Part shown: in pieces, positions 30,141 to 31,881 of the stretch
How the letters are laid out: each line of letters opens with the position of its first letter
Numbering within the stretch: the first letter of the stretch is position 1
DNA from: Pyrobaculum neutrophilum V24Sta
Lineage (GTDB): Archaea; Thermoproteota; Thermoprotei; Thermoproteales; Thermoproteaceae
Reading direction: 5' to 3'
NCBI RefSeq assembly: GCF_000019805.1
Contig: NC_010525.1
Coordinates: 744,001-808,000, forward strand
DNA: 64,000 nucleotides
Made by a program: the position numbers and the translations under genes
The notes under the pieces: model-generated
What the model saw: the letters and a program-made list of their open reading frames with translations, nothing else
What the model was told of the DNA's origin: nothing
Database searches by the model: none

Positions 30141-30257
30141 CGCCGCCGCCGGGATTTGAACCCGGGACTTCCGCCTGAGACCCAGCCTACGGGTTAACAG
30201 CTTCGGCGGACCCTTTCAACTCCTCCGCCGCTCTGAACCGAGCTGAGCTACGGCGGC
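30141..30257 (-). tRNA. tRNA-Asn (GTT) with two non-canonical introns
   Basis: Acceptor GCCGCCG/CGGCGGC, D stem GCTC/GAGC, anticodon loop CTGTTAA (30200-30194), T arm CCGGG-TTCAAAT-CCCGG, discriminator G. Intron 1 is 23 bases (30224-30202) between positions 30 and 31; intron 2 is 18 bases (30186-30169) in the variable loop, 45/46. Each fits a bulge-helix-bulge: CGGC/GCCG with bulges GGA and AAG; CCGT/GCGG with bulges AGG and AAG, cut after the second base of each. Splicing yields a 76-base tRNA with a perfect anticodon stem GCGGG/CCCGT. TATA about 26 bases upstream. Confidence 0.9.
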
Positions 30258-30325
30258 GGTATAGAGAAAACTAACACCTTAAAAATTTTTGTCCCACATA
30301 CACAACGGCCTACGACACGATATCC

Positions 30326-30517: not shown

Positions 30518-30607
30518 ATGATGATTGGAAAGGTGATGCTACCCCACGCCCGCGGAGAGCTAACCGCCATTGGCGTAAAGGCCTGGCCGGCAGAAGTATG
30601 TCCGTGA
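30518..30607 (+). CDS. 29-codon upstream frame overlapping the orphan gene
   Basis: ATG 30518 (or 30521) lies 22-25 bases from GTTTATATATT, the expected leaderless position, and opens a 29-codon frame ending in TGA at 30605-30607. The ATG of the 427-residue gene (30598) lies inside its last codons in another frame. It could be a leader peptide that brings ribosomes to the downstream start. Confidence 0.4.
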   Translation: MMIGKVMLPHARGELTAIGVKAWPAEVCP

Positions 30608-31881
30608 TCGAATTGCCAAGATCCATCGTGGACAGGCTGTTCATGGCGTATGGGGCCAACCAGTACTTGGGCATAGAGGCCATGGGTCTCCCAATACCCC
30701 CGGTAACCAGCAGATACCCTATCCTCCGGATAGGCGTAGAGCAACAAACAAAGGTATTCAAAGACCTTCGACCCAAAAATCCCCTCCAAGTAGATATATA
30801 CAGAGGTACTAGTGTAAGAATATCCGGATATCCGATACCTGAGTTAAGTATTGATTCAAGAAATAATATGTACAGAGGACCAGTTACAGACCTCGGAGCA
30901 GAAAGCGGGGTAGAAAGCGGGATTTCATTTATCCGGTTACGGCTGATAAGCCGTGCCACCTACGAGGATGTCCGTGAGATAATGGGTGAGCGGCACGAGC
31001 TCAAGCTTATCCACTATCCTCTGTCGGACGGCGACCTGTACCTCTTCACACGGGCAGATGACGCGGTTACTCTCCTGTCTCTCTTTGACAACCAGGGGGC
31101 TGGGGATCTTCTGAGGGAGTGGACGCCGGAGCTGGCGCCCGTGTGGGACAGGCTGGAGGAGCTGGCAAGGGAGACCAGAGTGGAGTACTCGGAGGAGGAC
31201 ATGAAGTTCTTCGAAGCGGCGGGGATCAGGATAGGAAGGGGACCCGGGTTCAGGTTTGGGCCCGTCATAACGCCCAAGGGGAGGATCTCTATACCAGATA
31301 ATATAATTAACGCGCTATACGAAAGGCTAAACGAAGAGAGGTTGAACCACAACGTATCCGCTGGACTTAGGTGGTGGTTAGGATGTGTAGCCGACTTGGG
31401 TTGCATAGGATTCGCTACAACGTCTCAGGTTATACATGGATGCAGGATGAGAGGTCTGAGACTCGGGGAAGAGTGGATCAATTGGCTGAGTGAGGCGTTG
31501 AGGGAAAGGAATTTGTATCTGAGCTTGTCTCTGCCTGGCTCGTACTGTCAGTGCGTGCTGATGGAGATCAATGACTTGAATAACGTCCCTAGTAATCTCA
31601 CAGAGGCGGTTGAGTTCGCCGATGAGCACTACCGGCCTGGGGAGAGGAGGGGCAGGTGTGTATGCGTTGACAACTCGTGTAGGGAAACTGAACCCGACCT
31701 TAGGAGGCTGGAGGAGCTTCTCGACGTTTATCTAAGGCGCCTCCACCGCGCCATATGGAGGGGTCTGGCCGTTGTGGAGAGGGGGGTTAGGGCGTGGGAG
31801 GAGTCCAGCATGCTCAAGGCGACAACCGAGGAGCTCAAGAAGATCGTCGATGAGATATACGACAACCTCCAGTTCAGATAG
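30598..31881 (+). CDS. Orphan 427-residue protein, accessory-like
   Basis: No family recognised. N-terminal 100 residues are beta-rich (LPIPPVTSRYPILRIGV), the middle has KFFEAAGIRIGRGPGFRFGPVITPKGRISIPDNII, then a cysteine-bearing part (LGCVADLGC, YCQC, CVCVDNSC) that might bind metal, and a helical C-terminus. Codon use and base composition are less GC-biased than neighbours (ATA, AAT, AGA are frequent between 30780 and 31450). Position beside a tRNA gene and a gene remnant suggests horizontal acquisition. Confidence 0.65.
   Translation: MSVIELPRSIVDRLFMAYGANQYLGIEAMGLPIPPVTSRYPILRIGVEQQTKVFKDLRPKNPLQVDIYRGTSVRISGYPIPELSIDSRNNMYRGPVTDLGAESGVESGISFIRLRLISRATYEDVREIMGERHELKLIHYPLSDGDLYLFTRADDAVTLLSLFDNQGAGDLLREWTPELAPVWDRLEELARETRVEYSEEDMKFFEAAGIRIGRGPGFRFGPVITPKGRISIPDNIINALYERLNEERLNHNVSAGLRWWLGCVADLGCIGFATTSQVIHGCRMRGLRLGEEWINWLSEALRERNLYLSLSLPGSYCQCVLMEINDLNNVPSNLTEAVEFADEHYRPGERRGRCVCVDNSCRETEPDLRRLEELLDVYLRRLHRAIWRGLAVVERGVRAWEESSMLKATTEELKKIVDEIYDNLQFR

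What the first reader, a model, noticed from the sequence alone, without database searches (positions are those of the whole stretch)
30141..30257. tRNA-Asn with two non-canonical introns, one inside the variable loop
Both introns (23 and 18 bases) form complete bulge-helix-bulge motifs with 3-base bulges and a 4-bp central helix. Intron 1 splits the anticodon stem at 30/31, so the stem and the GTT loop form only after splicing; intron 2 is in the variable loop at 45/46. No intron sits at the usual 37/38 site. This demands the broad-specificity splicing endonuclease of Thermoproteales.
Basis: partly seen in the sequence, partly recalled or inferred. Interest (0 to 1): 0.75.

Follow-up and report, generated by a model that had tools for sequence, protein, structure and literature searches.

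The report
Twice-interrupted asparagine tRNA gene
The window holds the only asparagine tRNA gene of a heat-loving archaeon, cut up by two tiny introns of a known type; its first intron sits exactly where, in close relatives, mobile DNA or rearrangement has broken the same gene into separate halves, which offers a direct view of how split tRNA genes may arise.

Summary
On the minus strand, 30257-30141 is a tRNA-Asn(GUU) gene with a 23-nt intron at 30/31 (30224-30202) and an 18-nt intron at 45/46 (30186-30169). Of 19 candidate bulge-helix-bulge introns, only this pair restores all 21 stem pairs. Intron 2 lacks the exon-side helix, so it is a relaxed HBh' motif, not a complete one. The genome, identified as Pyrobaculum neutrophilum by its CRISPR repeats, encodes the broad-specificity (alpha-beta)2 splicing endonuclease. 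Both intron positions are already in the literature and both introns belong to families recurring in sister tRNA genes, so the gene is an ordinary member of a known kind.

The unexpected result lies in relatives. In Pyrobaculum sp. WP30 the orthologous tRNA-Asn is interrupted at the same 30/31 site by a 3,754-nt multi-copy element. Shorter copies interrupt Lys(CUU), Arg(CCG), Trp(CCA) and a Thr-like gene at 30/31. Each copy supplies a T-run after the 5' half, a TATA-like box before the 3' half, and complementary arms that pair best with their own partner. Bin S10 has split tRNA-Asn and tRNA-Trp on separate contigs. I found no report of this; trans-splicing is inferred, not shown.

The parts
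30141..30257 (-). tRNA-Asn(GUU) gene, 117 nt precursor, 76 nt mature (without CCA)
   Evidence: Rfam RF00005 42.8 bits; ARAGORN Asn(gtt) after splicing
30225..30257 (-). exon 1, tRNA positions 1-30
   Evidence: BHB enumeration plus cloverleaf
30202..30224 (-). intron 1, 23 nt, at 30/31 in the anticodon stem
   Evidence: BHB with 4-bp central helix CGGC/GCCG, 3-nt bulges, 2-bp exon helix, 3-bp intron helix; conserved in G004
30227..30230 (-). 5' strand of the central helix of intron 1 (CGGC, tRNA positions 25-28; overlaps the D stem and the anticodon stem)
30204..30207 (-). 3' strand of the central helix of intron 1 (GCCG, inside the intron)
30187..30201 (-). exon 2, positions 31-45, contains anticodon GTT in loop CTGTTAA
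30169..30186 (-). intron 2, 18 nt, at 45/46 in the variable loop
   Evidence: central helix CCGT/GCGG (one G-U), 3-nt bulges, 4-bp intron helix, no exon-side helix
30141..30168 (-). exon 3, positions 46-73
30278..30290 (-). A/T-rich TATA-like box (AAAAATTTTTAAG) 21-33 nt upstream of the tRNA 5' end
   Evidence: sequence; promoter role inferred

Best explanation
This is the single-copy tRNA-Asn(GUU) gene of Pyrobaculum neutrophilum. It is transcribed as a 117-nt precursor. The heterotetrameric tRNA-splicing endonuclease (EndA) cuts the two bulge-helix-bulge introns at 30/31 and 45/46, and RtcB presumably joins the exons. The two BHB helices use different exon bases (25-28 and 40-43), so both can form in one precursor. 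Both also use bases of the mature D or anticodon stem, so the cloverleaf can close fully only after splicing. Both introns belong to families that recur at the same positions in other tRNA genes of this genome. Site 30/31 of tRNA-Asn is a recurrent break point: the orthologous gene is interrupted there by a 3.75-kb multi-copy element in Pyrobaculum sp. WP30 and is in two separated pieces in the MAG Bin S10. Sequence anatomy, conservation and enzyme genes are shown here. Splicing, ligation and trans-splicing are inferred.
For: Unique 21/21-pair solution and tRNA call only after splicing. Both introns conserved in G004, with changes in or beside the intron loops. EndA alpha and beta genes. Sister 30/31 introns AGGACC..GGTCCGCCGA in Lys(UUU), Arg(CCU), Arg(UCU), Arg(GCG) and Cys, and a Trp 45/46 intron GCTGGCGACAGGCGGA like intron 2. 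Known positions. WP30 and Bin S10 comparisons.
Against: No RNA evidence of splicing was available. Intron 2 lacks an exon-side helix. The unconstrained minimum-energy fold of the precursor at 37 C is not the BHB fold, although this is a hyperthermophile and the RNA would be protein-bound.
Confidence: 0.93

Rival explanations
1. The locus is a pseudogene or non-functional remnant and asparagine codons are read by another tRNA.
For: Neither ARAGORN on the window nor on the unspliced gene calls a tRNA.
Against: Spliced product has all 21 stem pairs; exons conserved across the family; no other GUU tRNA in the 99.98%-complete genome.
Confidence: 0.02
2. Splice sites lie elsewhere (for example 29/30, or 46/47 for intron 2).
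For: For intron 2, cutting at 46/47 would leave the same product because of a repeated G.
Against: No other pair of BHB candidates restores the cloverleaf (next best 19 of 21 pairs); 46/47 does not give a 4-bp central helix.
Confidence: 0.04
3. For WP30: the interrupted tRNAs carry giant cis introns (0.5-3.75 kb) made as one transcript, not two trans-spliced halves.
For: In all five WP30 cases the halves keep order and strand; the BHB and arms could equally form within one RNA; A. pernix tRNA-Asp shows that adjacent halves can read through weakly (PMC3218864).
Against: A T-run follows the 5' arm in every copy, and a conserved TATA-like box stands about 50 nt before the 3' half; in Bin S10 Asn and Trp halves are on different contigs with 13- and 14-bp perfect arms.
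Confidence: 0.2
4. The WP30 interruptions are dead insertions and intact copies of these tRNAs exist elsewhere.
For: The Thr-like copy has C33 in place of the near-universal U33; a Thr(GGU) duplicate was not ruled out.
Against: Anticodon-arm sequences of Asn, Lys(CUU) and Trp each occur once in WP30; joined halves give full or nearly full cloverleaves; arms differ between copies yet stay complementary.
Confidence: 0.07

Closest known systems
Multiple-intron tRNA genes of Thermoproteales (Sugahara 2008; Fujishima 2010; summarised in PMC4090602, PMC4033280 and PMC8450103)
   Same: BHB introns at 30/31 and 45/46, more than one per gene, transposing intron families, broad-specificity EndA
   Different: Nothing in kind; the gene was probably included in those surveys, whose papers are not in the library
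Split tRNA-Lys(CUU) of Nanoarchaeum and Staphylothermus, joined at 30/31 (PMC3218864)
   Same: Same joint as the split Asn, Lys, Trp, Arg and Thr-like genes seen in WP30; complementary arms
   Different: The window gene is cis and intact. In WP30 one repeated element family lies between the halves of five different tRNAs, and Pyrobaculum had been reported to have no split tRNAs
Caldiarchaeum tRNA-Thr(GGU) disrupted by a 1.8-kb recombinase-bearing element (PMC3293823)
   Same: A mobile element, an intron and a tRNA fragment at one locus
   Different: There a 5' fragment duplicate lies beside a whole two-intron gene; in WP30 the element lies between the only two halves and supplies arms and signals
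BHB rRNA introns with LAGLIDADG endonuclease genes in Thermoproteales (PMC4496867)
   Same: A mobile insert removed as RNA through a BHB
   Different: The WP30 ORF has an LGDG-like motif but no Pfam, NCBIfam or PDB relative; the inserts lie in several tRNAs and carry promoter- and terminator-like signals

Membership tests
Non-canonical multiple-intron archaeal tRNA gene | Removal of the inserts gives a full cloverleaf with the correct anticodon | tested here: met
   7/7, 4/4, 5/5, 5/5; ARAGORN Asn(gtt)
Non-canonical multiple-intron archaeal tRNA gene | BHB or relaxed BHB at each boundary | tested here: met
   intron 1 strict, intron 2 relaxed (HBh')
Non-canonical multiple-intron archaeal tRNA gene | Host has a broad-specificity (alpha-beta)2 EndA | tested here: met
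Non-canonical multiple-intron archaeal tRNA gene | Introns are excised in vivo | not testable with these tools
   no RNA data available
Transposing intron families of Thermoproteales | Similar introns at the same position in different tRNA genes of one genome | tested here: met
   part of the similarity is forced by the BHB pairing with identical exon bases
Split (trans-spliced) tRNA: window gene | Halves at separate places | tested here: not met
   all exons lie within 117 nt
Split (trans-spliced) tRNA: WP30 and Bin S10 genes | Separate halves with complementary arms and a BHB at the joint | tested here: met
   The WP30 Lys and Trp central helices have one C-A mismatch; the Bin S10 Lys joint does not fit a strict BHB
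Split (trans-spliced) tRNA: WP30 and Bin S10 genes | Two separate transcripts | not testable with these tools
   only TATA-like boxes and T-runs seen

The most novel reading that the evidence does not exclude
Position 30/31 of Pyrobaculum tRNA genes is the landing site of a transposon-like element that turns intron-bearing tRNAs into split tRNAs. Each copy carries BHB-forming ends, a terminator-like T-run for the 5' half, a promoter for the 3' half, and private complementary arms. Deletion of its interior leaves an ordinary 30/31 intron, as seems to have happened in WP30 tRNA-Arg(UCU), and possibly (about 1 in 5) in the gene of this window.
Probability: 0.65. Interest if true: 0.8.

Novelty: new member of a known kind. 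Interest (0 to 1): 0.5.

Why it matters
By itself the gene is one more two-intron tRNA of Thermoproteales. Its site has wider value. The same tRNA, at the same joint, is uninterrupted in some species, intron-bearing in P. neutrophilum, G004 and Thermoproteus, element-interrupted in WP30 and in separate pieces in Bin S10. Whether split tRNAs are ancient or arise late from introns through mobile DNA is a long-standing debate (PMC3218864, PMC4390854). A Pyrobaculum with a complete genome and five element-split tRNAs, and a sister MAG with a short intron at one of the same loci, would let that be tested directly.

Tried and rejected
The search for related loci with the downstream neighbour protein found no relatives in genome contigs. 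EF-2 protein and DNA trees resolve WP30 + G008 and the Thermoproteus clade but not the order of Pyrobaculum species, so the number of gains and losses at 30/31 stays open. The 1043-aa ORF of the WP30 element has no credible Pfam, NCBIfam or PDB relative (homologues also none) and is absent from the plasmid, phage and viral sets. Several G000 matches to the element's promoter stretch proved to be CRISPR leaders followed by repeats, not element copies. Partners for two further Bin S10 5' halves (C89:28945, C100:10465) were not found. The sigma-70 promoter and terminator scan is not informative for archaea. The key surveys (Sugahara 2007 and 2008, Fujishima 2009 and 2010) and the WP30 genome paper are not in the library, so 'not reported' means not found in the held literature.

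Full report
WHAT WAS CHECKED. The gene lies on the minus strand. Rfam's tRNA model covers 30257-30141 with 42.8 bits and is the only RNA family hit in the window; ARAGORN finds nothing there. I listed every possible intron in the 117 nt with a 4-bp central helix, 3-nt bulges and an intron helix of at least 2 bp: 19 candidates. Among all single and paired removals only 34-56 plus 72-89 of the precursor (window 30224-30202 and 30186-30169) gives all 21 stem pairs of a cloverleaf, with loop CTGTTAA and T loop TTCAAAT; the next best gives 19. ARAGORN then calls tRNA-Asn(gtt).

DETAIL OF THE MOTIFS. Intron 1: central helix CGGC(25-28)/GCCG, bulges GG^A and AA^G, exon-side helix 2 bp, intron helix 3 bp. 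Intron 2: central helix CCGT(40-43)/GCGG with one G-U, bulges AG^G and AA^G, intron helix 4 bp, no exon-side helix, so it is a relaxed (HBh') motif. The two BHBs use different exon bases and can form together. The first uses C25 of the D stem and both use anticodon-stem bases, so the mature stems and the BHBs exclude each other. That splicing must precede final folding is inference from these pairings.

GENOME AND ENZYME. The genome is one contig of 1,769,823 bases. CRISPR repeats seen in it, GAATCTCAAGTTGAGGATTGAAAG and GATTCTCAGATAGAGATTTGAAGG, are listed for P. neutrophilum alone among the six Pyrobaculum species tabulated in PMC3396285, which names the organism. EndA alpha (183 aa) and beta (97 aa) are present; their best solved relatives are the two chains of P. 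aerophilum EndA, 2zyz, an (alpha-beta)2 enzyme of broad specificity (PMC6379350). This is the only tRNA-Asn gene found.

RELATIVES. G004 (genome size of P. islandicum, from memory) has both introns; the exons differ only in the D loop and at one T-loop base, and the introns differ in or beside their loops. In other family members tRNA-Asn has no intron (G005), one that fits 37/38 (G001, G009, G010), 37/38 plus one near 53/54 (G003), 45/46 (G017, G018), 45/46 plus a T-loop intron (G002), 30/31 (G013-G015) or 30/31 plus one near 53/54 (G016) (these positions were read by eye). The EF-2 trees do not order the Pyrobaculum species well, so the number of gains stays open. Introns with ends like AGGACC..GGTCCGCCGA stand at 30/31 in five other tRNA genes of P. 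neutrophilum, and Trp has a 45/46 intron resembling intron 2. This agrees with the published idea of transposing intron families (PMC4390854; PMC10714607). Part of the likeness is forced, because the introns must pair with identical exon bases.

AN UNEXPECTED LEAD. In Pyrobaculum sp. WP30 (CP012158.1) genes on both sides of the tRNA are in the same order as in the window, but tRNA-Asn is interrupted at exactly 30/31 by 3,754 nt. The insert holds a 1043-aa ORF whose stop codon lies in the tRNA anticodon arm. Its 3' end (AACGAAAAACTTAAAAACACACAAAAACAAAGACAC) led to four more copies, all in tRNA genes and all at 30/31: Lys(CUU) 541 nt, Arg(CCG) 735 nt, Trp(CCA) 939 nt and a Thr-like(GGU) gene 749 nt. 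The inserts share 74-93% identity in blocks, with internal deletions. In each, the 5' exon is followed by an arm and a T-run, and the 3' exon is preceded by a TATA-like box and the complementary arm. Every trailer pairs best with its own leader and the reverse: for the five WP30 pairs plus Bin S10 Asn the true pairing is the best of all 720; with Bin S10 Trp and Lys added, the WP30 Arg trailer pairs better with two Bin S10 leaders, but over all eight only 2 of 100,000 random pairings are as good as the true one. In the Thr-like copy A27 in the exon is matched by T in the leader, a compensatory change in the central helix. The Lys and Trp copies have one C-A mismatch there. Joined halves (T-loop introns taken out by hand) give full cloverleaves, except one acceptor-stem mismatch in Arg. 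The Asn, Lys(CUU) and Trp anticodon arms occur once each in WP30. So these tRNAs either are trans-spliced or carry giant introns; the T-run and TATA-like box favour two transcripts, but no RNA data were available.

DIRECTION AND SPREAD. G008, the sister of WP30 in the EF-2 tree, has the same Trp locus with the same flanks but a short intron of about 36 nt at 30/31. WP30 tRNA-Arg(UCU) has a short 30/31 intron made of sequences like the two element arms (AGGAGCGGTTCCGCGGAGG..CTCTGCGGACCGTTGCGCTGA), as if the interior had been deleted. These two cases link short introns and split genes, but the direction is not proved. In MAG Bin S10 tRNA-Asn and tRNA-Trp halves lie on different contigs with 13- and 14-bp perfect arms, and Lys(CUU) halves are 209 nt apart with a TATA-like box between. 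Bin S10 lacks the WP30 element module, so its splits are probably independent. In G012 the Thr-like pair recurs (C5 and C2) and a Tyr(GUA) 3' part follows another copy. Chan et al. 2011 wrote that none of the five Pyrobaculum genomes then known has a split tRNA (PMC3218864), and the papers I could search report no other case.

VERDICT. The window gene is real, functional by anatomy and ordinary for its order. Its site matters because of what happened there in relatives. I score the window gene low, the comparative finding high, and the whole at 0.5.

Noticed in passing
L063 (G006:C1:858000-872000), L209-L212; Pyrobaculum sp. WP30, CP012158.1: Five tRNA genes (Asn GUU, Lys CUU, Arg CCG, Trp CCA, Thr-like GGU) are interrupted at 30/31 by copies (541-3754 nt) of one element with complementary arms, a T-run and a TATA-like box; probably split tRNAs, not found in the held literature.
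   Followed up: yes
L064, L065, L219, L222, L226 (G007, MAG Bin S10): tRNA-Asn and tRNA-Trp halves on different contigs with 13-14 bp perfect complementary arms; Lys(CUU) halves 209 nt apart; two more 5' halves (C89:28945, C100:10465) without a partner found.
   Followed up: partly
L227 (G008:C78) against L211 (WP30): Same Trp locus and flanks in the sister MAG, but a short intron of about 36 nt at 30/31 where WP30 has a 939-nt element.
   Followed up: yes
L213 (G006:C1:538800-540200): WP30 tRNA-Arg(UCU) has a short 30/31 intron made of sequences like the two element arms, as if the interior had been deleted.
   Followed up: partly
L116, L117, L221 (G012): Thermoproteus-genus MAG: the same Thr-like split pair as WP30 on two contigs and a Tyr(GUA) 3' part behind another copy of the element ORF (about 81% identical); horizontal transfer or MAG contamination.
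   Followed up: partly
L063:4945-8076 (minus): 1043-aa ORF of the WP30 element: its N-terminal part and its LGDG-motif part recur in many Pyrobaculum and Thermoproteus ORFs, with no credible Pfam, NCBIfam or PDB relative. It may be one of the paREP2-type putative transposons (from memory, not tested).
   Followed up: partly
window 30598-31881 (+): 427-aa ORF without Pfam or NCBIfam match, just upstream of the tRNA; the corresponding space in G004 and WP30 is too short to hold it, so it looks like a recent insertion.
   Followed up: partly
L126, L138, L144 (own genome): CRISPR leaders share the stretch GAAAAACTTAAAAAC..ACAAAAAC with the promoter part of the WP30 element; perhaps only a common promoter type.
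   Followed up: no
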